This document shows positions 33,430 to 58,192 of a stretch of 64,000 nucleotides of DNA, in pieces. Numbering within the stretch: position 1 is the stretch's first letter; the number at the start of each line of letters is the position of its first letter. The notes beneath the pieces are model-generated. The model saw only the letters and a program-made list of their open reading frames with translations, searched no databases and had not been told where the DNA came from. The stretch is from Diphasiastrum complanatum (Eukaryota; Streptophyta; Lycopodiopsida; Lycopodiales; Lycopodiaceae), in assembly GCA_029204225.1 (NCBI GenBank), contig CM055092.1, positions 40,087,820-40,151,819 on the forward strand, read 5' to 3'. Both the position numbers and the translations under genes were made by a program.

Positions 33430-33441
33430 TAGTATCAGAGT
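33430..33441 (+). promoter_or_regulatory. primer-binding site of element B, initiator-Met tRNA type
   Basis: TAGTATCAGAGT matches 10 of 12 bases of the plant copia site TGGTATCAGAGC and abuts the LTR end. Confidence 0.8.
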
Positions 33442-33572
33442 AGGTGGCTCAGTAATCTGCATTTTCATTGTGGATTCAGTCTCGTTTCTACTGAGACCTC
33501 ATATTAGCAGGTGCGCAGCCAACAATATTCAGCCATTGTTGTTTCTACCAACAATATCGATACTATACTAGA

Positions 33573-34290
33573 ATGGATTCTACTTCTAGTTCTTCTTTGT
33601 TTGACAAGCTCGTTGGAGAGAACTACCATCTTTGGAAGTTCAAGATGAAGGTCGTTCTACTAGCCAAACTGTGGGACTTAATGGATGGTACTAAACTCAA
33701 GCCAGAGGCTGATGCAGCTAGCATCACCAGATGGAGACAACGAGATGGCAAGGCTTTTGCCTTAATCACTCTGAATATCAGAGACTCCCAAATTAGTCAT
33801 ATCTGATCTGCATAGACACCTAAGGATGCTTGGGACATCCTAGCAACTCTCTATGACATCAGAGATGTCACTTCCAAATTACATCAAAGGAAGAAATTCT
33901 CCACACTCAGAGTGTCTGATGCAGACACCATTTCTAGCCATCTCAACAGATTCAAAAACCTAATGGAGCAAATGACTGCAACAGGATTGAACATTGAATA
34001 TTCAGATGCAGTAATGATCTTTTATCGAGTCTCCCTGAAGCCTATGAAACAACAAGCATGTTAGAAGTTCAATCATCTCAGATTCAGAATGTACTTCTAA
34101 AAATTTGTTAGATCTTGTACACATGGACATTTGTGGTCCTATGCAGACTATTTTCACAGGGGGAGCTGTCTATTTGCTAACTATTATTGATGACTTCTCT
34201 GGGAGGACTGCAACATATTTCTTGAAGAACAAATCCGATACTCTGAAGCTCTTCATGCAGTTCAAGACATCATCAGAAAAATCGACCTAG
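33573..34290 (+). pseudogene. element B gag N-terminus fused by deletion to integrase core
   Basis: MDSTSSSSLFDKL opens Gag, followed by NYHLWKFKMKVVLLAK and FALITLNIRDSQISH, a stop near 33805, then further Gag (DAWDILATLYDI, RFKNLMEQMTATG) in a shifted frame. Homology then jumps to integrase near 34100 (DLVHMDICGPMQT, LLTIIDDFSGRTATYFLKNK) with the first catalytic Asp only. Zinc knuckle, protease and the rest of integrase are deleted. No functional product is expected. Confidence 0.8.
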
Positions 34291-34299
34291 AGAAGACTC

Positions 34300-35240
34300 A
34301 AAGCTCTACACTCTGATGTAGGGGGAGTATTCCAACAGCAGAAGATCAATTTTTATTGGCTATTTCTCAGACCATCAGACATACAAGCTCTTCAATCTAG
34401 ACTCTCAGAAGACCTTGAAGAGCAGAGATTTCACTTTCTTGGAAGATCAATTTTTTGATCAGAAGGGAAAAGCCGAACAACAAAAAACTGATCCAAGTGT
34501 CGAATAATAGAAAATTGATACTGACTTGGATAGTGAATCAGAATCTCAACGGATCGAACAACATCACAAGATCAAATTTCAACACAAAAGATCGAATCGA
34601 TCCAGATAGCCTCTCTTCCTATTTATGGATAATCCGGCCTACTACTTTGTGCAGGAACTCAGCACTATTTCAGAGGCAGAGTCATTCATTGATGCTGACT
34701 AGTGCAAGGCAAAAGAGGACACCACACTTGTAGTTCTAAACGAGAATGGTTTTTATCCAAACTCGGCATACTCAAATATTTACTTCAAGTCTGTTTCAGA
34801 TCTTTCCATAATCACTACATTTTTCGAATCCGACCCAGCAGACTGATTTTCATCAATCTACAGAAGTTCAACTCATCAGCCAAGATTCTCAAAGGCTATA
34901 CAGATGCAAATTGGACAGAAAGGATGGACACCATAATATCGACTTCTGAATTTATGTTCAATCAAAGTCCAATCACATGTAACATCTAGACCTTAGTAGC
35001 ATCATCCTCCACAAAATCGGATTTTACAGTTGCCACAAATGCTACCAAGGAGGCAATTTGGCTAAGGAACCTGCTTGTAGATATTGATTTCATTCAGTCA
35101 CATCCAACGTCCATCTTCTGTGACCACCAAAACACAAGGGTAATTTTTCTGGTTTATTTTAGGACAGAGTTTATGGCAACAGTATACTTCGTCATGGAGC
35201 ACCATCTCAGATTTAACAATTTGTTAAATCTGAAGATCGA
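34300..35240 (+). pseudogene. element B scraps of integrase C-terminus, RT and RNase H
   Basis: Disordered short frames with family G wording: PSDIQALQS-like integrase C-terminal fragments around 34350-34500, a linker to about 34690, an RT fragment near 34735 (NENGFYPNSAYSNIYFKS), RNase H fragments around 34890-35130 (YTDANWTE, then ATKEAIWLRNLL), and the C-terminal tail before the polypurine tract. Multiple deletions and stops. Best read as a non-autonomous, decayed copy. Confidence 0.65.
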
Positions 35241-35269
35241 AATTTTTCAGGATCCACATTAAGGGGGAG

Positions 35270-35811
35270 TGTTGGAATTCTATGTTCAGGCCCAATTCCA
35301 TTAGGTAATGAGCATCCTGAAAAATTCTGTTTATATCTATTTTTGAAAACTACAAAATTTATGAAGGCTCGAATTTCCAACAAAGGATCAAAAAAGTCAG
35401 GATTTTGATCCAAGCCTATTTTTTCGAACCAATGTCAAATCTTGTCAAAGAGAGATTTTTTTAACCTGTTCGGTTCGGATCTGTTCTAAATTTTTGGAGC
35501 ACCTTCGAAACTGTCCAGTTCGTATTTGTTCTAACTTTTTCGAGCGCCTTTGAATCTGTTCGTGTTGGATTGGTTCTAGCTTTTTCGAGTGCCTTCAAAC
35601 CTATTCGGTTCAGATCTGTTCTAAATTTTTCGACCCAGTGTAACATTCTGAACCTTTGAATATTTTATTGTTCTGATTTATTTGTGTGGATTGTAATAGT
35701 GTTCAAACCATCTTGAATGATTTTATTGGTAACTGCCGCATTTTCGATCCATAGCTCACTACTCGCTCACCACTTCCACTGCAAGATATCGATTTTCTCC
35801 TATTTTCGACA
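35270..35811 (+). repeat. 3' LTR of element B (542 bp, internally deleted)
   Basis: Begins TGTTGGAATTC after AAGGGGGAG and ends TTTTCGACA. The 45-bp TTCGGTTCGGATC-type unit is present about four times (35462-35640), against two in the 5' LTR. About 300 bases of the central R region present in the 5' LTR are missing. Confidence 0.85.
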
Positions 35812-36705
35812 TGCTTTACTCACCTCACTATATCCAACAAATATACATTTCCTTGAAGATGGATCCTCCTTGGTCCTATCATCAAGAGTTATATTGACAT
35901 AGCATGTGCATCCAAAAGTTCTAAGAAAGTTGACACTTTGACTCCTCTTGAATAGCATCTCAAAAGGTGTCCTTCCATCCAAAATAGAACTCGGCCACCT
36001 ATTGCAAAAGAAATTAGCACACAACAAAGCTTGATCCCAAAATGGATTATCAATGTTAGCACTTAATCTCATGTCTTTGGCACTTTCACATAAAGCCCTA
36101 TTCTTCCTTTGTGTTGTATACTCCCTCTTGATCCCATGCTCATCACAAAAAGCCTTGAATTTGGTACATATGTACTCTCCACCATTGTCCCTCCTTAAGC
36201 ACTTGATCCTTGTAGAAAATTGGTTCTCCCTTGCATTCTTGAACTTAACAAAGACATCATAAACTTCATCTTTGTTCTTTAGTAGATAGATCCAACAAAA
36301 TCTACTAAAATCATCAATGAAAGTTACATACATCTTAGCTCCACTATTGCTGATTGCATGAATATCCGAATGTACAACTAAAGGCTTTGTAGATCTAGTA
36401 TAAGGTAGTCTATGTGACTTTGACAAAGCACAAGTCACAAACATGATTGATGCAACTTAAGGAACTTGGAGGACCAATCACAACCTTGTTTCTAGCCATT
36501 ACCTACAATGACTTGAAGTTGAGGTGCCCCATCCTTTTATGCCAAACCTCTTGAATAGGTATTTGATCACTTGCCACAAATCCAACTTGGTTAGCAATAA
36601 CACAAGCATCTAGTTTGAACAACTCCCCTTGCCTTTTATCTTTTCCAACCAGGACATCCTTCCTTTTGATCATAGGAAGGTAGTTCAACCTTGAAAATAC
36701 CTATA
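35812..36705 (-). pseudogene. element A protease-integrase remnant (right part of split gene)
   Basis: On the minus strand, from 36705: a broken end of the protease domain, RKDVLVGKDKRQGELFKLDACV, the zinc region (VWHKRMGHLNFKSL, then CALSKSHRLPYTR) and the integrase core. Asp is present in VHSDIHAIS and in RRDNGGE. A deletion removes the NGVAE region, so the catalytic Glu is lost (EYTTQRKNRAL). The C-terminal part ends SEVSKA at the B insertion. The zinc region is also shifted by a frame change near 36440. Right of 36705, element C begins. Confidence 0.85.
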
Positions 36706-36786: not shown

Positions 36787-39332
36787 ATGGCATGTCATGG
36801 AGGATATCTTCTAGAAGCCAGTGAAAGACTAAACACTTCTAATTACTCAATTTGGAAGTTAAGAATGGAGTCTGTTTTGATTCTCCAGGATGTTATGGAT
36901 ATTGTGCTTGGTGTTGAGGAGGAGCCTCAAGCACAGGTTGAAATCCCTAAATATAAGAAGAGAGCTAGAATGGATCTACATTTCATTAAGATGAATGTAT
37001 CTAATGAAATTTTGAGAGAGATAGGGTCTTGCACTACAGCCAAAGAAGATTGGGATGCACTAAAGTCCATCTATGAAGCAAAGAATACTTCTAGAATACT
37101 CACTCTTAGGAATCATATTTTCCAAAGTTTTCAAAGAAGTGAAGAGAGTGCATCTAACTATGTTCAGAGAGTTAAAGATTTACATAGAGAGCTTTCCTGT
37201 GTTGGTGTTACCATTAACCAAGTTGAGCTAGTTCAAGTCATACTGAATGGCTTGAGAGATGACTATGATAATCTTGTTCAATCTTTTGCTATTAAGGAGG
37301 AGTTACCTAATCTAGAAACTCTCCAAGGAATTCTTATTTCTGAAGAATCTAGACAAAGCTATAAACTCTCCAGGATGAACAAACTTGAACATGGTGGAAG
37401 TGACAAAGCCCTCTTTGTCAAAGGCAAGCAGAAAGGAAGGAGTAAGAACCAATTCTCTCAAGCATACAACAAAGCCAAAGCCAAAGATCGAGATCTAGAT
37501 GGTGAAGAGGATGAAACATCTCATCTCTCTAACTCAAAAACCAAGAAGAAGAAAGTGAAGTGCTTCTTCTATGGCAAAAAGGGGCACTATGCCTCTAATT
37601 GCTTTAAGAAGAAAAACCAACTCAAGCAAGCTAATCTCTCCAAAGATATTGAAGAAGATTATGTTGCAAGTGATGGAGAAGGATCACTTATGGTGTCCAG
37701 TTTTTCTTCATCACCTTTCAAGAAAGATGGAGCTTGGTATATAGACAATGGAGCCTCTTCACATATGTGCTGTTCAAAGGAGTCATTTGACTCAATCTTA
37801 TCTTTCAAAGGACTCAAGAGATCTATTTACACAGCTAATGATCATGAGTGTCCAATAGAAGGAATTGGCAACATTCCATTGAAACTTGCTTTTTCAAAAG
37901 TTCTTGCACTTTCTAATGTTCTTTTCATTCCAAATCTTACAAAGAACTTAATTAGTGTGGGAAAGTTGCTTGATAATGGTTGTGATGTAAAGTTCAACTC
38001 CAAAACTTGTTTTATTAAGAGAAAAGATGAGATCCTTTCTGATGAAACTAGATGTGGTGGAATTTTTAAGTTGAATTCTTATGAGAATGCAAACCTTTGT
38101 GAAATTGCTTTGTTATCTAAGGAGGAGCTGTGGCATAGAAGGTTGGGACATCCTAACTTTACATCTATGTCTTCTATGTTTAAGAAGAAGAAGGCTTTTG
38201 GTCTTCCTAAATCTCTTTCTAAAGATTTCAAGCCTTGTGAGGCTTGTGCCATTGCAAAGTCACACAGAAAGCCATATCAGAAGTCTTTTATAAAGACTAC
38301 TTATCCATTGGAACTCATACATTCAGATGTACATTTTTTCTCTTCTAAAAGTATTGGTGGTGCAACATGTTTTGTCACCTTTATTGATGACTTTACTAGA
38401 TACACTTGGTTGTATCTACTTTCTTCAAAGGCTATGGTTTTTGATCACTTCCTTATCTTCAAAGCTTATGTAGAAAAACAGTTTTCTTGCAAAGTTAAAG
38501 CTTTAAGATGCGATGGAGGAGGTGAAAATATCTCCAACAAGTTTCATAATTATTGTGAAGGTGAAAGAATAAAGAGAGAATTTTCTTGTGTCTATTCTCC
38601 ATCCCAAAATGGAGTAGCTGAGAGGAAAAACAGATCTTTATGTGAATGTGCTAAAGCAATTCGAGCAGCAGCTTCTTTGCCTATTGAATATTGGGGTGAA
38701 GCTATAAATTGTGCAAACTATTTGTGCAATAGATTACCTCACAATGCTCTTGCTGGAAAAACACCTTTTCAAGTCTTGTTGCAGAAAAAACCTAAGGTAA
38801 ATCACCTTAGAGTTTTTGGTTGTTTTTGCTTTGTGAATATGCCCTTGGAAACCAGGAAAAGAGATGATCCTAATTCTGTTAAAGGGATCATGGTTGGATA
38901 TGCATCCAACAAGAAAGCTTACAGGATCTATGTTCCCTCTACCTCAACTACAATTGAGAGTAGAGATGTGATATTCCATGAAGATCAAATATACATTCTT
39001 AAGAAGGCCAAGTTCAAAGATTCTCACAAAGATACTCCAATCGTCACCCTTGAAGATCATCATGGAGAGATGGGGACGATATTTGAGGAGGAGTCACCTC
39101 GAATTTTTTCACCAAGGAGATCTCAAAGAGAAAGATCCGAGCCTAGAAGGCTTACCTATGAAGATAGAGGAAAGCAAGTGGAAATCAACTCCACTAATTG
39201 TGCCTATTTTATCTCTCATGAGGAGCCGAAGGAAGTATATGATGCTATCAACTCAAAGGAATGGTACTTTGCCATAAGGGAAGAATATGATGCTTTGATG
39301 GCCAATAATGCATGGGAGCTTCTGGATCTTCC
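36787..39332 (+). pseudogene. element C gag, protease and integrase (open but with mutated motifs)
   Basis: About 848 codons open from the ATG. Gag reads NYSIWKLRMESVLIL and HFIKMNVSNEI. The zinc knuckle reads CFFYGKKGHYASNC: the second Cys (residue 262) is Tyr. Protease reads YIDNGAS, so the usual Asp-Ser-Gly is Asp-Asn-Gly (residues 320-322). Pre-integrase has LWHRRLGH and CEACAIAKSHR. Integrase keeps D514, D576 and E612 (35-residue spacing). The frame ends in the pre-RT linker (WELLDLP) where D inserted; ten more codons read into the D LTR. The two altered sites suggest Gag RNA binding and proteolysis are impaired. Confidence 0.88.
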
Positions 39333-39987
39333 TGTGAAAAATACAGATCCTAAGTGGATCTAAACTCCAAGATCATTGGCTTGAATGCTTGCACTCCAAA
39401 CTACATAAGCTAGGAATTGGCAACACATTCTATGCTACCTAGAATGCAAAGAACTTGATCAAAAAACATTTATCACAAATGGAAACTTCCATAAACATCA
39501 AGTGCGGCCCAAAATAGCATTATACAGTCCATAATACATCAGCCTATCACTTTTGGAAAGCACCTAAGATCATACACAATAGCTTGAAGACAATACACAC
39601 AACAATGCTCTCAATGGAGGAAGAAACAATGACAATGATCTATTGATCTCAATGAAGCATACAAAAGGTTTCTCCAACCTGTTCTCCACGACTTCCCTAC
39701 TATTTATGGATGAGGAAGATGACTCTCTCTCCTCTCTCTAGAAGGTACTTGACCCTAGATATTCCCTATATAGGAAAAATAGCTAAAAATGGCTTATATG
39801 ACCAAAATACATCAAAATGGTCTCATTTTGAAGGGTATGAAGTTTGACACTTCATCATACTGAAAAAATACAGTAAATAAAAACATTGTGGCCTGGTTCA
39901 CACGTGTGAAACTCCAGAACCAAAACTATTTACAATTTTAGCCAATTTAGGCCTCAAACTAGCTAGGAAATGTTGACAATTTTCACA
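39333..39987 (-). repeat. 3' LTR of element D (655 bp)
   Basis: Left LTR in window coordinates, bounded by TG and CA as an LTR should be. It contains the same TATA-like site, the TTCACACGTGTGAA palindrome (39897-39910) and the CT-rich segment as its partner. The 3' end of the element transcript would form here. Confidence 0.96.
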
Positions 39988-42900
39988 CTCCCTCTTCAAC
40001 ATTGAATGCTAGTTTCAACATAGTCTTTGAGCACATTCCAAGATTAGATCTATGCATTAAATATAGGTCCTTTCCCAATGGTTTGGTGAAGATATCAGCC
40101 ACACACTCCTTTGAAGAGACATGTTGAAGCTCCACCTCTTTGGCAATGACTTGATCTCTCACAAAATGGTGAGCAATCTCAATGTGCTTGCTCCTTGCAT
40201 GAAAAACAGGATTGCTTGCCAAGCTTTGGGCTGAAAGGTTATCACAAAGTATGATTGGAGTCTTCTCTGGTTCCAGCAAGTGAAGATCCAATAACATCCT
40301 CTTGATCCAAAGAATCTCCTTGGTGCATGTTGTTAATGCCTTGTACTCAGCTTCGGTGGAAGATAGAGAGATAGTTGGTTGCTTCTTTGATAGCCATGAG
40401 ACCACTCCATCTCCAAGATAGATTGCAAAGGCACTTGTTGACTTCCTATCCATTTGATCACCTGCAAAATCTGAATCTGAAAATCCACAAAGGTTAGGTG
40501 TAGTACCTCCATACAAGATGCCAAAATCTCTAGATCCCGAGATGTATCTAAGTACTCTCTTTCCTAGCTTCCAATGAGCCTCACTAGGATCTTGCATAAA
40601 TTGACTTAGTTTACCAACCACAAAGCTTAGATCAGGTCTTGTGATGGTTAACCATATAAGAGATCCTATTAGCTTTCTATAGAGAGTAATGTCCTTGAAG
40701 GATCTTTCATTACTTCTTGTAGTTAGCTTTACATTTGATTCCATAGGAGTAGAAACAACTTTACAATCTTCCATATGAAACCTTTTTAGAATAGAGTTAA
40801 CATACTTTTCTTGACATATGAATGTAGATTTAGAAGTTCTAATAATCTCTATTCCTAAGATATAATGAAGTTTACCAAGATCTTGAATTTCAAACTCTCT
40901 TTTGAGTGCCATCTTGATTTCATCTATATCTAGATTGTTACCACCACTTAAGATAATGTCATCAACATAGATCAAAAGTAAAGTGATATCATTTTCATTC
41001 AATCTAAAGTAGAGAGAATGATCATACTCACTCATAACAAAGTTTTGAGAAAGTAAGAAGGAATTGAGCTTAGCATACCAACTCCTTGGTGCTTGCTTTA
41101 GCCCATACAAACTCTTTTGGAGATAGCACACATGATTAGGCTCATCATGTGAAACATAGCCCTCGGGTTGCTCCATGTAAATATCTTCTTCAAGATCACC
41201 ATTCAAGAAGGCATTAGTAACATCCATTTGCCACATATCCCAATCATAAAGAGTTGCAAGAGAGATTAGGATTCGAATAGTTACCATCTTTGCCACGGGT
41301 GCAAAGGTCTCATCATAGTCAATACCATATTCTTGAGCATACCCCTTTGCCACCAACCTTGCCTTGTACTTGTTGATTGATCCATCTTGATTTGTCTTGA
41401 TCTTGAAGATCCACTTACAACCAATTGCCTTCTTGTCCTTTGGAAGCTTTACCAACCTCCATGTGTTGCTTTTGATGAGTGCTTGATGCTCATGATCCAT
41501 GGCTTGGATCCATTCCTTCTTTTGAATTGCTTCACCTACACAAGTTGGTTCATCAAAAGAGGTAAGAAAAGCAAAGTTAGAGTTGTCCACCTCTTGCTTT
41601 CCTTTTTCATCATAGGTTAGCCTTGATGGCTTAGCCCTTTGCCTTTGAGTCTTCCTTGAAGTTTGCTTTGGAGTGGCATCTCCATCTTCATCCAAGACAT
41701 CTTGCACATCATGATGATTAGTAGGCACATCAACATCAACATCAACAACATTGGAAACATTCTCTTCATGAAAGATGACATCCCTACTTATGACAACTTT
41801 CTTTGTAGAAGGAATGTACACTTTGTAAGCCTTGCTTACTTCACTATAGCCAACAAACACACCCTTCTTTGATGAAGGATCTTCTTTAGTTCTATCATCA
41901 AGTGTGATATTGACAAAACATGTACATCCAAAGATCCTACAATGCTTGACACTCGGCCTTCTACCATAAAGAACCTCATGAGGAGTTTTACCATCCAAGG
42001 AAGCACTTGTCCATTTATTACATAGATAGTTAGCACATGCTAAAGCTTCCCCCCAAAAAGACTTAGCAAGATTAGCATGTAGTCTCATTGCCTTGGCACA
42101 TTCACAAAGGGTTCTATTCTTCCTCTCGGCCACTCCATTCTGTTGTGGAGTCCTAGGACTAGACATCTCCCTCTTAATCCCATGTGCTATACAAAAGTCT
42201 TTGAACCTATTTGAGGTGTATTCCCCTCCATTATCAGATCTTAAGCATTTGATCTTTGTATTGAATTGGTTTTCCATTTCATTCTTGAACTTGACAAATG
42301 CAGCAAACACTTCATCCTTACTTTTAAGAAGATAGATCCAAGTATACCTACTAAAGTCATCAATGAAAGTTGCATACATCTTTGCCCCACCATTGCTAGT
42401 TGTACTAGAAGAATGAATATCAGAATGCACAAGTTGAAAAGCTTCTTTAGATCTAGAAGTAGATCTAGAATAAGCAAGTCTATGAGATTTGGACAAGGCA
42501 CAATGTTCACAAACACTATTGTTTGCAACAAGACTTTTAGGGAGACCAAGAACAAGCTCCTTCTTTGCCATTACCTCCAAAGATTTGAAGTTGGGATGGC
42601 CCAACCTCTTGTGCCAAACTTCTTGGTTTGTCAATTGCTCCCTAGCCATACATCCTTCATGATTAGAGATCACACATGCATCAAGCTTGAAAAGTTTACC
42701 ATGCCTCCTACCTTGAGCAATCAAGGATCCACATTTACTTATCAAACATGCATCTCCAATGAACTCCACATCTAGTCCTTTGTCAATCATTTGACTTACA
42801 CTAAGCAAATTCTTAGTGATTGAAGGAATGTACAAAACATTTTCAAGATTTGCTTTCCTATTTGTTGAAAGGGAAATAGGAATAGTGCCTATGCCTTTGA

Positions 42901-43936
42901 TGTCACATTGACCATCATTTGCAGTGTAGATGATGTTACCTTCTCCCTCATAAGACAATAAGGATGTAAAGTATTCCTTATGTCTTGTCATGTGAGATGA
43001 GGCTCCACTATCAATCCACCAAGGATCATTATCATCTATGTTGGCTAACAAACTTGAAGTCATAACAAGTGATTCACATGTGTTATGTTCTTCCTCATCT
43101 ATTGTAAGATTTCCTTGCCTCTCTCCTTGCTCTCTTTTCTTCTTATAACATTCATTTGCAAAATGACCTTTTATCCCACAATAAAAGCACTTGAACTTTG
43201 ACTTATTGTTCTTAGTAGAAGAGGAAGAGGAAGAGTGATCATCATGATCAAAGTTACCACCTTTGGACCATTTCCCTTTGCCTTTACCTTTGCCCTTGAA
43301 TTTGCCTTTTGTGAAGAAAGCCTCTTCACCTCCACCTTGCAAGGATGCACCATCAAGCTTTGATTGCAACCTATGTTCTTCAGCCAATAAGATTTCTTGC
43401 AAGTCAACCACACTTGGCAAGACTCTTTGAATGGCAAAACTTTGCACAAGGTTAGCATGTTCATTTAGCAAACCATTCAACATAACTTGGACTATTTCAC
43501 CATCTTTTATGTTCTCATCAATGCATGCTAAATCATCACTTAGGGACTTAACTCTCAAGATAAATGCATGAGCACTTTCACCCTCTCTTTGCCTACTAGA
43601 AAATATTTGTCTCCTTAGGGTCAATACCCTAGATGTGGACTTTGATTCAAAGAGCTTCTTTAAGGCATTCCATGCCTCACTTGCACTTTGACACTTTCCA
43701 ACTTCCTTGAGAAGTTCATTTGTAACATTCATTTTAATGATATGAAGAGCCCTTTTGGCCTTCTTATCAAACCTTTGTTGCTCTTGAAGTGTGAGAGGTC
43801 TCTCTTCAATTTCTGCAACTATGTCCATGAGTTCATTCAACTCAAGTAAGGACTCCATCCTCACTTTCCAAGTAGAGTAGTTTGATGAACTCAACCTTTC
43901 ACTAGACTCTAGCATGATCCCACCATTGGAAGCCAT
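39983..43936 (-). CDS. element D gag-pol polyprotein, intact (1,317 aa)
   Basis: A single frame encodes every copia function. Gag domain spans about residues 15-195 (NYSTWKVRMESL, HIIKMNVTNELL). A Gly/Lys-rich stretch leads to the CCHC knuckle, C250, C253, H258, C263. Protease has D309-S310-G311. The integrase zinc site is H442, H447, C476, C479; the core triad is D506, D568, E604. RT spans about 825-1070 with catalytic YVDD at 990-993. RNase H spans about 1150-1285 (D1154, E1195, D1232), ending in FTKPLGKDLYLMHRSNLG. Polyprotein processing by its own protease gives capsid, protease, integrase and RT-RNase H. All key residues are present. No separate gag stop or frameshift site is seen. Confidence 0.96.
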   Translation of the reverse strand: MASNGGIMLESSERLSSSNYSTWKVRMESLLELNELMDIVAEIEERPLTLQEQQRFDKKAKRALHIIKMNVTNELLKEVGKCQSASEAWNALKKLFESKSTSRVLTLRRQIFSSRQREGESAHAFILRVKSLSDDLACIDENIKDGEIVQVMLNGLLNEHANLVQSFAIQRVLPSVVDLQEILLAEEHRLQSKLDGASLQGGGEEAFFTKGKFKGKGKGKGKWSKGGNFDHDDHSSSSSSTKNNKSKFKCFYCGIKGHFANECYKKKREQGERQGNLTIDEEEHNTCESLVMTSSLLANIDDNDPWWIDSGASSHMTRHKEYFTSLLSYEGEGNIIYTANDGQCDIKGIGTIPISLSTNRKANLENVLYIPSITKNLLSVSQMIDKGLDVEFIGDACLISKCGSLIAQGRRHGKLFKLDACVISNHEGCMAREQLTNQEVWHKRLGHPNFKSLEVMAKKELVLGLPKSLVANNSVCEHCALSKSHRLAYSRSTSRSKEAFQLVHSDIHSSSTTSNGGAKMYATFIDDFSRYTWIYLLKSKDEVFAAFVKFKNEMENQFNTKIKCLRSDNGGEYTSNRFKDFCIAHGIKREMSSPRTPQQNGVAERKNRTLCECAKAMRLHANLAKSFWGEALACANYLCNKWTSASLDGKTPHEVLYGRRPSVKHCRIFGCTCFVNITLDDRTKEDPSSKKGVFVGYSEVSKAYKVYIPSTKKVVISRDVIFHEENVSNVVDVDVDVPTNHHDVQDVLDEDGDATPKQTSRKTQRQRAKPSRLTYDEKGKQEVDNSNFAFLTSFDEPTCVGEAIQKKEWIQAMDHEHQALIKSNTWRLVKLPKDKKAIGCKWIFKIKTNQDGSINKYKARLVAKGYAQEYGIDYDETFAPVAKMVTIRILISLATLYDWDMWQMDVTNAFLNGDLEEDIYMEQPEGYVSHDEPNHVCYLQKSLYGLKQAPRSWYAKLNSFLLSQNFVMSEYDHSLYFRLNENDITLLLIYVDDIILSGGNNLDIDEIKMALKREFEIQDLGKLHYILGIEIIRTSKSTFICQEKYVNSILKRFHMEDCKVVSTPMESNVKLTTRSNERSFKDITLYRKLIGSLIWLTITRPDLSFVVGKLSQFMQDPSEAHWKLGKRVLRYISGSRDFGILYGGTTPNLCGFSDSDFAGDQMDRKSTSAFAIYLGDGVVSWLSKKQPTISLSSTEAEYKALTTCTKEILWIKRMLLDLHLLEPEKTPIILCDNLSAQSLASNPVFHARSKHIEIAHHFVRDQVIAKEVELQHVSSKECVADIFTKPLGKDLYLMHRSNLGMCSKTMLKLAFNVEEGV
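39988..39997 (-). promoter_or_regulatory. polypurine tract of element D
   Basis: GAAGAGGGAG on the minus strand directly abuts the 3' LTR; it would prime plus-strand DNA synthesis. It is also coding: the polyprotein frame passes through it. Confidence 0.9.
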
Positions 43937-45096
43937 GATTCTAATGTTTCTTCAACTTTTAGGTTCTGTCCTAAAGCACTTAGCACTCACTTTTCTCTCA
44001 ACAAATGATAGATAAAGAGATCTATGAAGATTTAGGACCCTAAAACACTTCTATCTTGAACCTAGATGGTTTCCAAGCATAGAAAGGAAGATTGAAACAC
44101 ATGCAACACTTTGCACACACTAAGAATGGATTACAAAATCAAACCAACCTGAACACACTCTTGCTTAAGCTCTCAAACTTTCCAGCAAGTGACCAAATCA
44201 AGTTATGGTGTGAAGAGTTACTTGCATTCTTAGAAAATACCCAAAACTAGGATGCCAAGATTACCTAGTAATGAACAAACTTGATCAACATATGATCAAC
44301 ACACTAAGATATTGATTCAACCTGTAAAACCACATGTAAACCACACTTCTAAAAGTTTATAAACTCCAGCAAGTGATAAATACAAGATTTAGAGGTGAAT
44401 GAATGAGCACACTTAGTGAATCACAAGACTAGCTTCACTATCTTGTCAAATCTTGGTGTTTAGATGTAGATCTAAGATCACTTCACATGAGAATGTTCCT
44501 CAACCTGTTAAGAACCTGAAAACACACTTGCATAATGGTTAACACCTTCCAGCAAATGCTCCAATCAAATTACATAAGGAGAGTTACTTACATGCTCAAC
44601 AAAGTACACCAAAATTTATGCCAAAATTGATGACAATCTTTACAATATGCTCTTCACAATGGAGCTTACAATATGTTCACCCAAAAAAGGGGATCTTTCA
44701 TCCAAATGGGAGCTTTGCTCAGCCTTTAGGAGAATTACAACTCACTCAAAAGAGCATTTGTCATCCACTTAAGGAGAAGTTTCATCCACTTAAGGAGAGT
44801 GTTCATCCAAGAATGGAGATTGTCAACAATAGGATTGAAAAGAACATTGTTAGTATTGAATATGCACAAGCCTCACAATCACAAATGATTAGGTGTTATG
44901 ATCTGATCCAAAATAGTTTCTTTTCAGCCTCTGATCTTCAATAGACCTGAAATATGCTTTTGATCCACAAGTTCAACTCACAAAACAAAGGTTAGTAAGA
45001 TTTGATCAACAAAGCAATGCAAAATCATGCTAGAACTTGATCAAACATCCAAATATCACCAAAAATGGAATACTTACTGTAAATAGAAGCCAACCA
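43937..45096 (-). other. leader of element D, with degenerate repeats
   Basis: About 1.16 kb between primer site and start codon. Three diverged units begin with AACCTG and contain CCAGCAARTG and GAGTTACTTRCAT words, around 44140-44260, 44320-44420 and 44500-44620. At 44761-44822 a 21-bp unit (TCATCCACTTAAGGAGA-) is repeated nearly three times. A + strand frame of 108 codons crosses this part, with HPLKE repeats; I consider it incidental. A long leader may hold packaging signals, but nothing specific is visible. Confidence 0.7.
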
Positions 45097-45108
45097 GCTC
45101 TGATACCA
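45097..45108 (-). promoter_or_regulatory. primer-binding site of element D, initiator-Met tRNA
   Basis: TGGTATCAGAGC on the minus strand is a perfect match to the standard plant copia site and abuts the 5' LTR without a gap. Confidence 0.95.
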
Positions 45109-45542
45109 TGTGAAAAATACAGATCCTAAGTGGATCTAAACTCCAAGATCATTGGCTTGAATGCTTGCACTCCAAACTACATAAGCTAGGAATTGGCAAC
45201 ACATTCTATGCTACCTAGAATGCAAAGAACTTGATCAAAAAACATTTATCACAAATGGAAACTTCCATAAACATCAAGTGCGGCCCAAAATAGCATTATA
45301 CAGTCCATAATACATCAGCCTATCACTTTTGGAAAGCACCTAAGATCATACACAATAGCTTGAAGACAATACACACAACAATGCTCTCAATGGAGGAAGA
45401 AACAATGACAATGATCTATTGATCTCAATGAAGCATACAAAAGGTTTCTCCAACCTGTTCTCCACGACTTCCCTACTATTTATGGATGAGGAAGATGACT
45501 CTCTCTCCTCTCTCTAGAAGGTACTTGACCCTAGATATTCCC

Positions 45543-45548
45543 TATATA
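45543..45548 (-). promoter_or_regulatory. TATA box of element D
   Basis: TATATA within the palindromic CCTATATAGG, about 220 bases inside the LTR from its upstream edge (45763), a usual distance for plant copia LTR promoters. A purine-rich GAGAGAGGAGAGAGAG run follows downstream on the minus strand. Confidence 0.65.
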
Positions 45549-45672
45549 GGAAAAATAGCTAAAAATGGCTTATATGACCAAAATACATCAAAATGGTCTC
45601 ATTTTGAAGGGTATGAAGTTTGACACTTCATCATACTGAAAAAATACAGTAAATAAAAACATTGTGGCCTGG

Positions 45673-45686
45673 TTCACACGTGTGAA
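45673..45686. promoter_or_regulatory. 14-bp palindrome with G-box core
   Basis: TTCACACGTGTGAA is a perfect palindrome containing CACGTG (45677-45682), the core bound by plant bZIP and bHLH factors. It sits upstream of the TATA-like site in U3. The 3' LTR carries the same sequence at 39897-39910. Function is inferred only from sequence and position. Confidence 0.6.
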
Positions 45687-45763
45687 ACTCCAGAACCAAA
45701 ACTATTTACAATTTTAGCCAATTTAGGCCTCAAACTAGCTAGGAAATGTTGACAATTTTCACA

Positions 45764-47198
45764 CTTCCATCCAACAAGCATACCATTGGTTGCAAATGGG
45801 TTTTTTGAGTCAAGTATAATCAAGATGGCACTATCAACAAGTACAAGGCTAGGCTTTGTGCTAAAGGATTTGCTCAAGTATATGGACTTGATTATGAGGA
45901 GACCTTTGCCCCAGTTGCAAAGATGGTGTCAATTAGAATCATAATTTCTCTTGCTTGTTTTTTCAATTGGCAAATTCTTCAACTAGATGTTTCTAATGCA
46001 TTTCTAAATGGCTATCTAGAAGAAGAGATCTATATGGATCAACCTATTGGGTTCATCCATGATGAAGAAAAAGTTTGCTTGCTCTTCAAAAGTTTATATG
46101 GATTAAAGCAAGCTCCAAGGTCATGGTATTCTTGACTTAACACCTTTCTTGAGTCACTAGGATTTAATCTTAGTAACTATGATCCTTCCTTATATGTCCT
46201 TTTGTGATAAAGATATTGTCATCCTTCTTATTTATGTTGATGATATCATTCTGACAAGAAGTTGTATCAAGTTAGTTGAGGAAACCAAGATTGCACTTGG
46301 AAAAGAGTTCAAGATGCAAGATCTTGGAAAAATTCACTATATTCTAGGATTAGAGATTGACTTTCTTAAAGATAAAGCTTTTGTATGTCAATCTAAGTAT
46401 GCTCTTTCAATATTAAAAAAGTTCAATATGTTGAATTGTAAGAGTATAGCAACACCTATGGAGCAAAATGTAAAGGACTCTAACAAAGGTGATGAAAGAT
46501 CCTTCGAGGACATCACACTTTTTAGAAGTCTTATAGGCTCCTTAATTTGGCTCATAATAACTAGACCTGACATAAGCTTTAGTGCTCATAAGTTGAGCCA
46601 AGCTATGCAAAATCCTTCAATTTATCATTGGAAAAAAGCCAAGAGAGTGCTTAGATATATATCTTCAACTTTTAATTTTGGTTTATTGTATAAAAATGAA
46701 GAGCTTTCTATTATTGGTTATTCTGACTCGGATTTTGCAAGTGATAGAGCAGATCGAAAATCTACAAGTGCTTATGTCATATATCTTGGAGGAAACTTGA
46801 TATCTTGGCTTTCCAAAAAGCAAGATACTGTATCACTCTCATCATGTGAAGCTGAGTACAAGGCGCTCACTACAACAACAAAGGAAGTGCTTTGGATCAA
46901 GAGGTTACTAGTGGAGCTAAAGATAATTATGGAAGAAAATATACCTATGATCATGTGTGACAACATTTCAGCTCAAGCCCTCGCCAACAACCCAATATTC
47001 CATGCAAGGAGCAAGCATATCGAAGTTGCACATCACTTCGTGAGAGAGAAGCTCATTGGAGGTGAAATCAAATTGGAGCACATCGACATATCATCTTGCA
47101 TTGCGGATATGCTCACCAAACCTTTGAGCAAAAGTTCCTTCAACAAGCATAGAGCCAACCTTGGAGTTATACCAAGATCCATGTTCAAATCAATATAG
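45764..47198 (+). pseudogene. element C reverse transcriptase and RNase H
   Basis: Resumes in the pre-RT linker (SNKHTIGCKWVF), then [27 protein letters not shown] and [12 protein letters not shown]. Stops occur at about 45814 and 46134, and a frame change near 46196 precedes the catalytic YVDD at 46219-46230. From 46179 the frame is open for 339 codons through the connection (GLEIDFLKDKAF, LIGSLIWLIITRPDISF) and RNase H (GYSDSDFASD, SSCEAEYKA, MCDNISAQAL, MLTKPLSKSSF), with TAG at 47196-47198. Catalytic residues persist, but the frame is not continuous. Confidence 0.9.
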
Positions 47199-48211: not shown

Positions 48212-49195
48212 AACAGAGAGGCCAGCAACACAACAAGATCAAATGAGGTATAACAAGAGGGCCAAAAGGGCTCTACACATGATCAAGATGAATGCTACCA
48301 ATGAGCTTCTCAAGGCAGTTGGTAAGAGTACTTCATCAAAGGATGCTTGGGATTCATTGAAGAAGCTTTATGAATCCAAGTCTACTTCTAGAGTGTTGAC
48401 TTTAAGAAGGCAAATCTTTTCTTGTTTGCAAAAGAGTGAAGAAAGTCCAAATACTTTTATTTTGAGAGTGAAAGCTTTCAATGATGAGCTAGCTTGCATT
48501 GATGAGAGCATTAAGGAAGGAGAGCTTGTACACATTATTCTTAATGGATTGTTGGATGCTCATGCTAACATTGTTCAAAGTCTTGTCATTCAAAGAAATT
48601 TTCCAAGTTTGATTGATCTTGATCAATGAAGAATATAGGCTTCAAGCAAGAGCTGGATCTTCATCAACATCTCAAGGGCAAATTCAAAGACAAAAACAAA
48701 AGTAAGTGGTCTAAAGGGCAAGATCAAGGGGAGGCTTCTTTAAATGGTGAAAAGAAAGATAGATCAAAGCTCAAGTACTTCTATTGTGGCATCAAAGGAC
48801 ACTTTGCAAGTGAGTGCTAGAGAGAAGAAGAGAGATCAAGAAGACAATCAAGGTAATGTTACTCATGATGAAGATGGTTTGGATGTTCAAAATTCAAATG
48901 ATAATGCTTTTGTGATGTCTTCATGTATGCTTGCCAATAATGGAGATCTAGATCCATGGTGGATTGATAGTGGTGCAAGCTCACACATGACTTTTCACAA
49001 AGAGTATTTCACTTCTTTGTTGGCATATGGAGATGACAAGAGGGTGATCTACACGGCCAATGATGGTGAGTGTGCAATCAAAAGGATTGACACAATTCCT
49101 ATTTCTCTCTCTACAAATAGGAATGTTCATTTGAAGGATGTTTTGTTCATACCTTCCATTACCAAGAATCTACTTAGTGTGAGTCAATTTCTCAT
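48212..49195 (+). pseudogene. copia gag and protease fragment (element E)
   Basis: Starts abruptly within Gag (ERPATQQDQMRYNKRAKRAL). It continues with HMIKMNATNELL, FILRVKAFNDELACIDESI and a stop at 48627. Next come a frame change and the zinc knuckle with its first Cys changed to Tyr (YFYCGIKGHFASEC, then TAG). The protease WWIDSGASSHMT follows near 48957. Homology ends at TKNLLSVSQF, after which the remnant LTR of element F begins. E is closely related to F and in the same direction, so the pair may stem from unequal recombination or tandem insertion. The 285 bases to its left hold no recognised feature. Confidence 0.85.
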
Positions 49196-49306
49196 TTTGT
49201 GTGTAGATGCTGATTTTTCTACATTGGTCAGATTGGTAGTGTATTTCCCTTTCTAACCAAAGATCATTTAAGTGGATTGGATCTTAAGGATCTGAAATCC
49301 TTCACA
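49196..49306 (+). repeat. 5'-truncated LTR end of element F
   Basis: About 110 bases ending GATCTGAAATCCTTCACA, similar to the LTR end of D (GATCTGTATTTTTCACA), directly before a perfect primer site. The exact left edge is unclear because E protease sequence runs into it. Confidence 0.65.
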
Positions 49307-49318
49307 TGGTATCAGAGC
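49307..49318 (+). promoter_or_regulatory. primer-binding site of element F, initiator-Met tRNA
   Basis: Perfect TGGTATCAGAGC, directly after an LTR-type CA. From here a leader of 559 bases runs to the gag ATG at 49878. Confidence 0.9.
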
Positions 49319-49877
49319 TTGGGTTTCAGGTTATGAAGGAGAAAATCAGATCTATCAAGGATTTGGTGAAGATATCAAGTCTAGAGCATGCTAGAGAGGA
49401 TTCTACACCAAAATCGAGTAGATCAAAACCTATGTAGGTTTATAAACTTGATCAATTTAGATTTTTGAATTCACATACTAGATTTGGCTGATTTTTGGCT
49501 CATTGGATCAGCCTAAGTGGTGGCTAATAGATTGCATATCAAATTCTCAGTATTTGCATGCAGATTTGGGATAGTCAATTTTTTGTGATTTTGTCAAAAC
49601 CCTAATTTTGATTGGATCTCTAGATAGTGAGGTTGCTGGACTTCATTTGAGTGTGTTTCAATCTTAGGAAGTGGCAAAATTCATTAGATTGAGGATAGAT
49701 CATAGTTTGATCAAGATTCCATGATTCTATTTGTTGATTTGCTTGGTATAAGTGCTAGAAAAGAATTTTTGAGATAGTTTCAAATCTTGGCGATTTCTTT
49801 TGAAAGCATTTGTTGTTGTTCAAAGGAGTGCTTTGTGTATTGAAACAAGTTGAAAGAGAAGATCAGGTCATTGCTAC

Positions 49878-51663
49878 ATGGCAACCTCAATTGGAGTCAT
49901 GTTGAAAGCTAATGATAGACTTACCTCAAGTAACTATTCATTGTGGAAAGTGAGGATGGAGTCACTAATTGAGATGAATGATGTTTTGGATATTGTTGTA
50001 GGTTTGGAGGAGAGACCAACAACACAACAAGATCAAATGAGGTATGACAAGAGGGCCAAGAAGGCTCTACACATGATAAAGATGAATGTTACCAATGAAC
50101 TTCTCAAGGAAGTTGGTAAGTGCACATCATCTTTGGAAGCTTGGAATTCATTGAAGAAGCTTTATGAATCCAAGTCTACTTCTAGAGTGTTGACTCTAAG
50201 AAACCAAATCTTTTCTTGTTTGCAAAAGAATGAAGAAAGTCCAAGTACATTTGTTTTGAGAATGAAAGCATTGAATGATGAGTTGGCTTGCATTGATGAA
50301 AGCATTAAGGAAGGAGAGCTTATTCAAGTAATTCTTAATGGCTTGTTGGATGCTCATGCTAACATTGTTCAAAGTCTTGCCATTCAAAGAAATTTGACAA
50401 GTTTGATGGATCTTCAAAAGATTTTGATCAATGAAGAATATAGGCTTCAATCATTTTCTTGCTTGAAGCCTATATTCTTCATTTGATCTACATCGACACT
50501 TCAAGAGGAAGTTATGTTCACAAATGGCAAATTCAAGGGCAAAACCAAAATTAAGTGGTCTAAAGGGCAAGATCAAGTGGATGCTTCTTCAAGTGGCAAA
50601 ACTAAGGATAGATCAAAGCTCAAGTGCTTCTATTGTGGCATCAAAGGACACTTTGCAAGTGAGTGCTACAAGAAGAAGAGAGATCAAGGAGACAAGCAAG
50701 GTAATCTTACTCTTGATGAGGATGGTTTGGATGTTTAAGATACAAATGATGATGCTTTTGTGATTTCTTCATGTATGCTTGCTAATGATGGAGATCTAGA
50801 TCCTTGGTGGATTGATAGTGGAGCAAGTTCACACATGACCTTTCACAAATATTACTTCACTTATTTGTTGGCATATGGAGATGACAAGAGGGTGATCTAC
50901 ACAACCAATGATGGTGAGTGTGCAATCAAAGAGATTGACACAATTCCTATTTCTCTCTCTACAAATAGGAATGTTCATTTGGAGGATGTCTTGTTTATTC
51001 TATCTATTACCAAAAATTTGCTTAGTAAGTAAAGGCCTCAAGGTGGAGTTTGATGGAGATGCTTGTTTGATCAAAAGGAAGGATGTCTTGGTTGGAAAAG
51101 GTAAAAGGCAAGAGAAGTCGTTCAAACAAGATGCTTGTGTTATTGCTAAACAAGTTGGATGTGTTGCAAGGGATCAAATTCCTATTCAAGAGGTTTGGCA
51201 CAAAAGGATGGGACACCTCAACTTCAAGTCATTGGAGGTAATGGCAAGGAAGAAGGTTGTGATTGGTCTTCCAAGTTCCTTAAGTGATATCAAGCATGTT
51301 TGTGAGTCTTGTGCTTTGTCTAAGTCACATAGACTACCTTATACTAGATCTATTTCTAGATCTACAAAGCTATTTCAACTTGTACATTCGGATATTCATG
51401 GATTTACTACAATTAGCAATAGTGGAGCTAAGATGTATGTAACATTCATTGATGATTTTAGTAGATTTTGTTGGATATATCTACTAAAGATCAAGGATGA
51501 AGTGTATGATGTCTTTATCAAGTTCAAGAATGCAAGGGAGAACCAATTTTCCACAAATATCAAGTGCTTGAGGAGTGACAATGGTGGTGAGTACATATCT
51601 AACAAGTTAAAGGCCTTTTGTGATGAGCATGGGATCAAGAGGGAGTATACAACATCAAGGACC
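49878..51663 (+). pseudogene. element F gag, protease and integrase core
   Basis: ATG opens MATSIGVMLKANDRLTSSNY with Gag continuing to about 50450 (HMIKMNVTNELLKEV). There a snap-back palindrome destroys the frame. The zinc knuckle CFYCGIKGHFASEC (near 50625) and protease WWIDSGASSHMT (near 50808) follow, with a TAA at about 50738. The zinc region (VWHKRMGHLNFKSL, CESCALSKSHR) and the integrase core keep Asp in VHSDIHG and Asp in RSDNGGE. A TAA (in place of CAA) follows TTSRTP at 51667-51669. Confidence 0.88.
50426..50488. repeat. snap-back inverted duplication in element F gag
   Basis: GATCAATGAAGAATATAGGC... on the left is answered by ...GCCTATATTCTTCATTTGATC on the right, with arms of 25-26 bases (one extra T) and a 12-base loop. 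The loop and right arm together are the reverse complement of the gag sequence expected to follow the left arm, judged from element E. Confidence 0.9.
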
Positions 51664-53130
51664 CCATAACAAAATGGAGTGGCTAAAAGGAAGAATAGGA
51701 CTTTATGTGAAAGTGCTAAAGCTATGAGGTTAAGTGCTAATCTTGACAAACCATTTTGGGATCAAGCTTTGTTGTGTGCCAATTTCTTGTGCAACAGGTG
51801 GCCGAGTGCTATTTTGGATGGAAGTCAAGAGAATGACAAGTACCTTCAAGGCTCACATATGATCAAAAGGGTAAACAAGTAGTTTCTGGAGATTATGTTG
51901 ATTTCCTAACCTCTTTGGATGAGCTTACGAGTGTAGATCAAGCAAGGAAAGAAGAGGAGTGGATCCAAGCAATGTATCTTGAGTATCAACCTCTTATGAA
52001 GAATGGAACATGGAGATTGGTGGATTTGCCTAAGGACAAGAAAGCTATTGGATGCAAATGGATCTTCAAGGTGAAGACAAGCCAAGATGGATCTATCAAC
52101 AAGTACAAGGCAAGGTTAGTGGCAAAAGGATATGCTCAACAACAAGAGATTGACTATGATGAGACCTTTGCACCCGTGGCAAAGATGGTAAGCATTCAAG
52201 TCATCATTTCACTTGCTACACTTTATGGATGGGATCTATGGAAAATGGACATTTCAAATGCATTCTTGAATGGGGATCTTGAGGAGGAAGTGTACATGGA
52301 GCAACCCAAGAGCTACATTTCATCAACAAAGCCAAATCATGTGTGTCTTCTACAAACGAGTTTGTATGGCCTTAAGCAAGCACCAGGGAGTTGGTATGCT
52401 AAGCTTAACATTTTTTTTACTCTCTCAAGGCTTTGTTATGAGTGAGTATGATCATTCACTTTATTATAGATTTGCTGCAAATGATGTTACCATCTTGCTA
52501 ATCTATGTGGATGATATCATCTTGAGTGGTGGAGACAATCAAGTTGTGGAGGATATCAAGAATGCTCTTAAAAAGGAGTTTGAGGTGCATGATCTTTGTA
52601 ATTTGCATTACATTTTGGGAATAGAAGTCAATAGATCTTCTCAATCTACTTTCATTTGTCAAGAAAAGTATGCTAATTCTATTCTAGAAAGTTTTCATAT
52701 GGTAGATGCAAAAGCTATTGATACACCTATGGAGTCTCGTGTAAAGCTAACTATAAGAGGTAATGAAAGATCCTGCGAGGACATTACTCTCTATAGGAAG
52801 CTAGTTGGTTCACTCATCTATCTAGCTATTACTAGACCAGATCTAAGCTATTGTGTAGGAAGATTGAGTCAATTCATGCAAGATCCTAGTGAGAAGCATT
52901 GGAAGCTAGGAAAGTGAGTTTTGAGGTACATCATTGGAACTCGAGATTTTGGCATATTGTATGAGGGATCATCACCTACTCTTTTTGGATTTTCAGATTC
53001 GGACTATGCTGGAGATGTAATGGATAGGAAATCCATTAGTGCTTATTGTATTTTCATAGGTGATGGAGCTATATCATGGATGTCGAAGAAACAAGCCACT
53101 ATCTCATTGTCATCTAGTGAGGCCAAGTAC
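51664..53130 (+). pseudogene. element F integrase end, RT and RNase H
   Basis: After the TAA, NGVAKRKNRTL has Lys where the catalytic Glu is expected. The integrase C-terminus is deleted after AILDG (about 51825). RT reads NGTWRLVDLPKDKK, CKWIFKVKTSQDG, KMDISNAFLNGDLEEE and YGLKQAPGSWY, shifts frame near 52415, then LLIYVDDIILSG and LGIEVNRSSQS. A TGA interrupts at 52916. RNase H reads GFSDSDYAGD and SLSSSEAKY, where copia F homology ends at 53130 and family G 3' sequence takes over. Confidence 0.88.
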
Positions 53131-57439: not shown

Positions 57440-58192
57440 TGGACTAAAGTTATCAAAGGAACAGTCTCCTCAAATTGAGGCAGAAAAGGAAGAGATGAAG
57501 CGCTACCCATTGCAATCCATCATCGGCTCACTGATGTACACAATGATCTGCACGCAACCAGAGCTTGCATATTGGATTAGTACACTTAGTCAGTTCCTGT
57601 CAAATCTAGGCTTAACTCATTGGAAAGCACTAACAAAGGTCATGAAGTACATCCAAGCAACAAAAACTCTTAGCATCTGCTACGGAGGCAGCCACACTGC
57701 CAACATTCTTGAAGCCTACACAGATGCAAATTGGGCAAGAGATGTCGACACCAGAAAATGAAATTTTGGATTTGTATTATGATACAACCAAGGCCCAATC
57801 TCATGGAACAACCGGAAGCAGACCTCAGTTGCATTATCATCAACAAAATCTGAATACATAGCTGCCACAAATGCAACCAAAGGGCGATCTGGCTAAGGCA
57901 ACTACTTGCAGACATCAACCTTGCACAAGCACTTCCTACAACAATCTATTGTGACAATCAAAGCACAATAGCATTATCTCTCAATCCGAAATTTCACTCT
58001 CGAAGCAAACATATCGAAATCAGGTATCATTACCTTAGAGAGAAAGTGCATAGCAAGGAAGTAGCATTGGTTTTCTGCAGAGCAAACTACATGGCAGCAG
58101 ATTACTTCACAAAGGGTCTATCAAAGGAGCAACATCTCAAATTTAATGATATGTTAAATCTGAAGATCAAGTTTTCTCAAGATCCACATTAA
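57440..58192 (+). pseudogene. copia RT end and RNase H (family G)
   Basis: Begins at PGLKLSKEQSPQ, the RT-RNase H connection, and reads SIIGSLMYTMICTQPELAYW, AYTDANWARD, a TGA at 57760-57762, SVALSSTKSEYIA, a frame change near 57880, then YCDNQSTIALSLNP, HIEIRYHYLREK, FTKGLSKEQHLKFN. It overlaps the same part of the 3420-4487 copy and preserves the natural 3' end that the other lost. Confidence 0.85.

What the first reader, a model, noticed from the sequence alone, without database searches (positions are those of the whole stretch)
39333..45763. Structurally complete, recently inserted Ty1/copia element with intact polyprotein
Seen: 655-bp LTRs that read as identical, perfect CTTCC duplications, perfect primer site, polypurine tract, and a 1,317-codon frame with all catalytic residues. 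Known: LTRs are identical at insertion and diverge with time. Inference: D inserted recently and may still be mobile, unlike everything else in the window.
Basis: partly seen in the sequence, partly recalled or inferred. Interest (0 to 1): 0.75.

Follow-up and report, generated by a model that had tools for sequence, protein, structure and literature searches.

The report
Young copia retrotransposon with spliced copies
This is a recently inserted, structurally intact plant Ty1/copia retrotransposon, an ordinary thing in itself, but its family in the same genome includes dozens of copies that look as if they were made from spliced RNA, which retrotransposons are expected to avoid copying.

Summary
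In detail: a 6,431-bp Ty1/copia element on the minus strand with 655/655 identical LTRs, CTTCC duplications, an exact 12-nt PBS, a short polypurine tract and an open 1,317-codon frame with the catalytic motifs. It lies inside a decayed copia element. In its unnamed 1.74-Gb genome the family is young and large: 40 of 40 scored LTR hits (221 candidates) are at least 99.6% identical, and a 40-mer of its pol occurs 2,050 times exactly. Recent insertion stands; genome-wide D is not special.

The unexpected part: 39 places carry the exact junction left by losing window 40477-41078 (602 nt, size checked in two copies), GTATGC...CTAAC...TTTTCAG, a GT-AG intron-like stretch in RT; the junction makes a stop codon. 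The same junction, predicted beforehand, occurs at two places in the diverged E family. Best reading: family RNA is spliced there, and spliced RNA lacking the RT core was reverse transcribed in trans and integrated, perhaps more than once. No RNA data were available. The 1.17-kb leader holds a diverged triplicated module of unknown function.

The parts
39333..45763 (-). Ty1/copia element D, 6,431 bp, nested in element C
   Evidence: LTRs, duplication; length
45109..45763 (-). 5' LTR, 655 bp, TGTGAAAA...TTTTCACA, TATA-like CTATATAG at LTR nt 215
39333..39987 (-). 3' LTR, 655 bp, identical to the 5' LTR
   Evidence: 0 of 655 differences
39328..39332 (.). target-site duplication CTTCC, left copy
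45764..45768 (.). target-site duplication CTTCC, right copy
45097..45108 (-). primer binding site TGGTATCAGAGC (initiator tRNA-Met type; tRNA match recalled)
   Evidence: exact match, abuts the LTR
43937..45108 (-). 1,172-nt untranslated leader, 17 upstream ATGs, longest uORF 23 aa
   Evidence: same leader in other copies
44446..44628 (-). leader module M1 (about 184 nt)
44262..44445 (-). leader module M2
44079..44261 (-). leader module M3
39983..43936 (-). gag-PR-INT-RT-RH frame, 1,317 codons, stop codon inside the 3' LTR
40477..41078 (-). 602-nt GT-AG stretch in RT (contains YVDD); its exact junction of loss occurs at 39 places in the genome; inferred intron
39988..39997 (-). polypurine tract GAAGAGGGAG
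36787..39332 (+). host copia element C, left part of its frame (open)
45764..47189 (+). host copia element C, right part; in-frame TGA at 45806 and 46133, later frameshift

Best explanation
D is a recently integrated, structurally intact LTR retrotransposon of the Ty1/copia superfamily. Shown: identical LTRs, target-site duplication, PBS, PPT, open frame, a young high-copy family, and 39 places (42 with slightly diverged ones) with the exact junction left by loss of one GT-AG stretch. Inferred: RNA from the 5' LTR is copied by the family's own RT in particles and integrated; part of that RNA is spliced from GTATGC in the RT region to TTTTCAG at the start of RNase H, which puts a TGA at the junction so that the spliced RNA can encode only Gag-PR-INT and the N-terminal part of RT; some spliced RNA keeps LTR ends, PBS, leader and PPT, is packaged with RT made by intact copies, and is integrated as RT-less copies. 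The low fraction (39 against 2,050) fits leaky inclusion rather than a main pathway.
For: Structure. Family youth: 40 of 40 scored LTR hits (of 221 candidates, D's own two among them) full length at 99.6-100%; 26 LTR pairs besides D, 22 with exact 5-bp duplications, 23 of equal length with 0-6 differences. Splicing: two C17 copies with different flanks and duplications lack the identical 602 nt; boundaries GT...AG with CTAAC ending 16 nt before the end of the stretch; only 38 of 3,352 possible 602-nt deletions in the frame have a GT..AG register; the acceptor ranks 2 of 317 AGs and the donor 22 of 210 GTs in D's frame (weight matrices recalled). 39 exact junctions genome-wide, reversed-pattern control 0; junction shifted by five bases 0 at up to one mismatch. 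Of the other 37 exact places, 20 were sampled at the expected 3' end: 19 end in the LTR there, with 18 distinct flanks. Predicted E-family junction found at 2 places. A marker variant found at 14 places is in the 2 C17 spliced copies and in 12 places with no junction place within 4 kb. Stop codon at the junction in both fetched copies.
Against: No RNA was available, so splicing is inferred from DNA. The donor is only moderate, and the CTAAC before the acceptor is not kept in E. Both sites lie in conserved coding motifs (SWYAKL and GFSDSDFAG), so their conservation in E needs no selection for splicing. The size of the loss was seen in two copies only; in the others only the junction. The 39 could be mostly one amplified founder; the marker evidence for a second origin could also come from recombination or gene conversion (the C17 pair lies 12 kb apart in inverted orientation). 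The two E-family places share the same variants and may be one locus. Identical LTRs can also come from conversion.
Confidence: 0.78

Rival explanations
1. The 602-nt loss was one ordinary DNA or template-switch deletion; its GT..AG ends are chance, and the RT-less copies are a normal non-autonomous subfamily mobilised in trans.
For: Copies are very alike (30 of 41 identical over 188 nt, 11 with one change); the C17 pair share a variant absent from the other 24 sampled 5' ends that reach it.
Against: Chance of a GT..AG register 38 of 3,352, with a top-ranked acceptor; only 1 nt of homology at the ends; same junction in the E family; the marker variant splits the deleted copies. Intact copies are about as alike over 176 of those 188 nt (20 of 24 identical to D, 4 with one change), so likeness does not point to a founder.
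Confidence: 0.17
2. D is older than it looks: its LTRs were made identical by gene conversion, or the assembly collapsed them.
For: Near-identical LTRs are abundant in this genome, so conversion is possible. Three family loci exist as duplicated blocks.
Against: Both LTRs sit at unique junctions with a matching duplication; D's internal region differs from every other fetched copy at only 3 of 4,000 positions, which itself indicates youth; other pairs show small divergences of their own.
Confidence: 0.05
3. The long leader is removed by splicing to let ribosomes reach gag.
For: Donor- and acceptor-like sites and a TACTAAC near the PBS; 17 upstream ATGs; donor count high at one threshold.
Against: The enrichment disappears at other thresholds; 26 of 31 copies reach the gag ATG at 1,157-1,172 nt, so none of those 26 lost a leader intron; the other 5 break off earlier and were not resolved.
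Confidence: 0.05

Closest known systems
Classic plant Ty1/copia (Pseudoviridae) elements, Tnt1-like annotated hits
   Same: Gene order gag-PR-INT-RT-RH in one frame, initiator-Met-type PBS, short PPT, 5-bp duplications, 6.4 kb with 0.66-kb LTRs against a 5.60/0.56-kb average for classic copia (PMC2829016, passages)
   Different: No linker (stop codon inside the 3' LTR); closest proteins listed are distant: gag 27% (Hibiscus, 3 hits in all), best near-full-length RT match 57% (Cucumis melo; 120 of 7,614 listed), INT at most 49% (120 of 5,476 listed)
BARE1 (barley) and EVADE/ATCOPIA93 (Arabidopsis) spliced subgenomic RNA
   Same: Copia elements in which splicing creates an early stop and a shorter product (PMC3735527, passages; PMC8892269, passages; PMC12786077, passages)
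   Different: There the intron lies at the gag-protease region and gives Gag alone; BARE spliced DNA copies could not be amplified. Here the stretch lies in RT and integrated copies without it are numerous
SpIREs (spliced integrated retrotransposed elements) of human L1
   Same: Copies of a retrotransposon made from its own spliced RNA (PMC5860796, abstract and section list)
   Different: Non-LTR element; splicing within 5'UTR or 5'UTR/ORF1; described as generally dead ends. The two LTR copies fetched here keep both LTRs, PBS, leader and PPT
Ogre (plant Ty3/gypsy) intron
   Same: Plant LTR retrotransposon with a functional intron (named in PMC12786077, passages; original paper not held; its place in pol is recalled)
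   Different: Different superfamily; details not read
Noble family of grapevine
   Same: Copia with a long leader of variable length starting at TGGTATCAGAGCC (PMC2576258, passages)
   Different: Leader 269-695 bp there, 1,172 here with a triplicated module

Membership tests
Ty1/copia LTR retrotransposon | Integrase before reverse transcriptase, RVT_2 type RT, copia-type gag | tested here: met
   PF14223 27-192, PF00665 499-597, PF07727 824-1066
Ty1/copia LTR retrotransposon | LTRs with TG..CA ends, PBS, PPT, short target-site duplication | tested here: met
Ty1/copia LTR retrotransposon | Transposes through RNA in particles | not testable with these tools
   no RNA or particles; the deleted copies are indirect evidence of an RNA step
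Sirevirus | Linker domain with several PPT copies, about 10 kb, large gag or env-like gene | tested here: not met
   No linker, 6.4 kb against values in PMC2829016 (passages); PPT copy number itself not counted
BARE1/EVADE-type gag subgenomic splicing | Intron at the gag-protease region ending in a stop soon after gag | tested here: not met
   The inferred intron is in RT, stop at the junction after codon 952. A further intron near the end of gag is not excluded: donor-like sites there were only listed
SpIRE-like spliced copy | Exact GT-AG excision relative to intact copies | tested here: met
   two copies aligned; exact junction at 39 places; E family
SpIRE-like spliced copy | Independent insertions with hallmarks of retrotransposition | tested here: met
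   TTGGC and GGGTG duplications for the C17 pair; 18 distinct 3' flanks among 20 places sampled of 37; duplications of those 20 not examined
SpIRE-like spliced copy | The spliced RNA exists in the cell | not testable with these tools
   no transcript data
Tork or other named plant copia lineage | Placement in a reference RT tree | tested here: inconclusive
   D on a long branch in a clade of 23 tips (support 0.93) of database proteins; no lineage references held

The most novel reading that the evidence does not exclude
The RT-region splicing is a conserved expression device of this copia lineage, not an accident: it makes a subgenomic mRNA for Gag-PR-INT that ends exactly at the junction, and its RNA is repeatedly packaged and integrated, so the family continually produces its own RT-less parasites, leaving a countable genomic record of how often a plant LTR retrotransposon packages spliced RNA.
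Probability: 0.25. Interest if true: 0.68.

Novelty: new variant of a known kind. Interest (0 to 1): 0.48.

Why it matters
Retrotransposons must avoid packaging and integrating their spliced RNA, and little is known about which RNA is packaged in LTR elements other than BARE (both stated in PMC3735527, passages). A family with about 2,000 young intact-donor copies and about 40 spliced-junction copies gives a direct count of leakage, and shows how RT-less parasitic copies could arise in one step from splicing. The element itself, young and intact, is ordinary for a large plant genome.

Tried and rejected
Leader introns: weight-matrix scans gave no robust excess, and the 26 of 31 copies that reach the gag ATG keep the leader to within 15 nt. 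A shunt hairpin: no strong structure, z between -1.78 and 1.71 in 10 windows. D and E leaders are only weakly alike (80 against a best of 200 shuffles of 69; single modules against E's leader fall below their shuffles). Host gene capture in the leader could not be tested. Rfam and tRNA searches of the window were empty. Lineage naming failed for lack of references. An allele without D: a 1-kb piece of C beside D gives 4,001 candidates, 40 scored, the best other copy 97%, so no allelic empty site is visible among them. A 200-base search over the intact donor found nothing although D itself must match; the tool skips common words, so exact patterns were used. A C4512 copy whose leader match ends at a donor-like site is followed by about 1.15 kb without further match to D in the fetched locus; its rest was not obtained, so it is not counted as spliced and not excluded.

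Full report
Observation. The two LTRs at 39333-39987 and 45109-45763 are identical at 655 of 655 positions and are flanked by CTTCC on both sides. The element reads on the minus strand: 5' LTR 45109-45763, PBS 45097-45108 directly abutting it (exact TGGTATCAGAGC), a 1,172-nt leader, a 1,317-codon frame 43936-39983, a 10-nt purine tract, and the 3' LTR. The stop codon lies in the first five bases of the 3' LTR. Pfam gives copia gag, Pol_BBD, gag_pre-integrase, integrase, SH3-like and RVT_2; zinc-knuckle, protease, integrase, RT and RNase H motifs are present (patterns recalled).

Setting. D sits inside another copia frame (C, plus strand). Read across the empty site, C is continuous up to a TGA 42 bases beyond the insertion, then another TGA at 46133 and a frameshift. 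A related element E (PBS 49307, frame from 49878 to 53133 with stops, 58-75% amino-acid identity to D in its pieces) lies downstream. Two other direct-repeat pairs could be LTRs: 32591-32866 with 35270-35539 (230 of 265 aligned positions identical) and 53135-53384 with 58177-58427 (234 of 250). I ran no dedicated LTR finder. D is the only young pair that I saw in the window.

Age. No difference in 655 bp gives an upper 95% bound of 176,000-352,000 years with recalled rates.

Family in the genome. The genome search answered: the window is C1:40087820-40151819 of a 1,744,706,496-base genome in 5,176 contigs, unnamed. Of 221 LTR candidates 40 were scored, all full length; four besides D's own two are identical to D's LTR, the other 34 differ by one or two changes. 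I fetched the other 38 neighbourhoods and 25 expected partner regions. This gave 26 LTR pairs besides D: 22 with exact 5-bp duplications, 2 with 4-bp, 2 without; 23 equal-length pairs have 0 (2), 1 (7), 2 (7), 3 (4), 4 (2) or 6 (1) differences. By flanks the 26 pairs are 21 insertions, because three loci occur as duplicated blocks. These copies were picked for likeness to D's LTR, so they lean young. The last 460 codons are open in 20 of 27 copies with a 3' end, and the first 100 codons in 23 of 29 5' ends long enough to test. A 40-mer over the intact donor occurs 2,050 times exactly, reversed control 0. D differs from every other fetched copy at 3 of 4,000 internal positions covered by at least 8 loci, none altering a catalytic residue.

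Leader. It contains three diverged copies of an about 184-nt module: local scores M1/M3 98 against a best shuffle of 41, M2/M3 82 against 45, M1/M2 only 50 against 42. It has 17 upstream ATGs against a mean of 28 in dinucleotide shuffles, the longest uORF 23 aa. Of 31 copies with a 5' LTR, 26 have the gag ATG 1,157-1,172 nt after the LTR, so the leader belongs to the family. I found no support for leader introns or a strong hairpin. Function unknown; a role in packaging or translation is a guess.

Spliced-looking copies. Two copies on C17 (12562031-12567859, plus; 12579680-12585512, minus) have different outer flanks and different exact duplications, TTGGC and GGGTG, yet lack the same 602 nt. 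In D this stretch is window 40477-41078 and reads GTATGC ... CCTAACCTTTGTGGATTTTCAG, with a single base of homology at the ends. Only 38 of 3,352 possible 602-nt deletions in the frame have a GT..AG register; the acceptor ranks 2 of 317 AGs and the donor 22 of 210 GTs in the frame by recalled matrices. The stretch covers residues about 953-1153 with YVDD, and the junction itself makes a TGA in both copies.

How many. The exact 38-nt junction occurs 39 times, reversed control 0; a 188-nt pattern with up to 3 mismatches gives 41 places, 30 exact and 11 with one mismatch; the union of both lists is 42. A control junction shifted by five bases occurs 0 times at up to one mismatch. Against 2,050 intact donors, 39 is about 1.9%. 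In these places I saw the junction, not the whole copy. I sampled the expected 3' end of 20 of the 37 other exact places: 19 end in the LTR there (18 exactly, one altered in the last two bases), with 18 distinct flanks; one had no LTR end where expected.

One origin or several. A variant at element position 1984 is in the two C17 copies and in none of the other 24 sampled 5' ends that reach it. Genome-wide its 41-mer occurs 14 times; the other 12 have no junction place of either list within 4 kb, and one of the 12 was seen to have an intact donor at the expected distance (whose list shows only the first places). So the C17 pair and the other deleted copies have different backgrounds: at least two origins, or one origin plus recombination or conversion. 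Over 176 nt beside the junction, intact copies vary as little as deleted ones (20 of 24 identical to D, 4 with one change), so nearby variants cannot decide further.

A prediction. E has the same donor and acceptor bases, though not the CTAAC. I built the expected E junction from E's own flanks and searched: two places match, each with two mismatches, both in the upstream exon, against 1,766 intact E-type donors at up to three mismatches. They share their variants and one is on a small contig, so they may be one locus. A second family with the same excision favours splicing over chance deletion.

Mechanism. Shown: exact GT-AG-less junctions at dispersed places, with LTR ends and, in the two copies examined, duplications. 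Inferred: splicing of family RNA, packaging of spliced RNA, reverse transcription with RT from intact copies, integration. Whether the spliced RNA is a useful Gag-PR-INT messenger, as with Gag in BARE1 and EVADE (PMC3735527, PMC8892269; passages), or mere leakage, is open.

Literature. BARE authors state that retrotransposons must avoid packaging and integrating spliced RNA and that DNA copies of spliced BARE RNA could not be amplified (PMC3735527, passages). Human L1 SpIREs are the nearest precedent (PMC5860796, abstract and section list). A review names Ogre and EVADE as plant LTR elements with introns (PMC12786077, passages). My searches that might show integrated spliced LTR-element copies listed 12 of 46, 12 of 199, 10 of 140 and 8 of 15 papers; I saw no plant case in those titles and abstract starts. 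The library is open-access only, so this is weak evidence of absence. Nesting is common, though coding regions are not the favoured target (PMC6911290, passages). Passages of PMC5014426 and PMC9097378 added nothing.

Check of this report.

Verdict. The finding as written is right and ordinary. The spliced-looking copies in its family are the part worth following.

Noticed in passing
window 36787-39332 and 45764-47189 (C): C's family is very large: 4,001 candidates for a 1-kb piece (40 scored), best other copy 97%; an older burst than D's.
   Followed up: partly
window 48216-49217 and 49307-53133: A second E-like gag/PR fragment lies directly upstream of E, 85% alike; E's match to D ends at 53133.
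   Followed up: no
window 53135-53384 and 58177-58427: Direct repeat, 234 of 250 aligned positions identical, starting where E breaks off and just after an RNase H match: possibly the LTR starts of another, older element inserted in E.
   Followed up: partly
window 32591-35812: Old, short copia remnant with LTR-like ends (230 of 265 aligned positions identical) and a PBS-like TAGTATCAGAGT at 33430.
   Followed up: no
window 11564-12600: Tandem array of ATCTCGACCGACG-type units with nested periods of 24, 49-50, 98-100 and 120.
   Followed up: no
window 17977-18142 and 25068-25167: Long dinucleotide runs, (TC)83 and (GA)50.
   Followed up: no
L011/L014/L030, L012/L010/L026, L042/L043: Three D-family insertions occur with near-identical flanks on different contigs or far apart on one: duplicated blocks or alternative haplotypes.
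   Followed up: partly
L009 1-2655 (C1813): Between internal region and 3' LTR lies about 60 nt that ends in the same bases as the flank upstream of the 5' LTR; rearranged or converted copy.
   Followed up: no
L024 and L064 (C12:3433529-3441654): Two family copies in inverted orientation share the flank TATAG, and the first lacks matching duplications: a rearrangement between copies.
   Followed up: no
L070 2411-3656 (C4:11429916): Copy in which LTR nt 1-176 joins directly to leader nt 430, without the rest of the LTR and the PBS.
   Followed up: no
window 13828-14484: Retrotrans_gag (PF03732) frame, a gag of another retrotransposon type.
   Followed up: no
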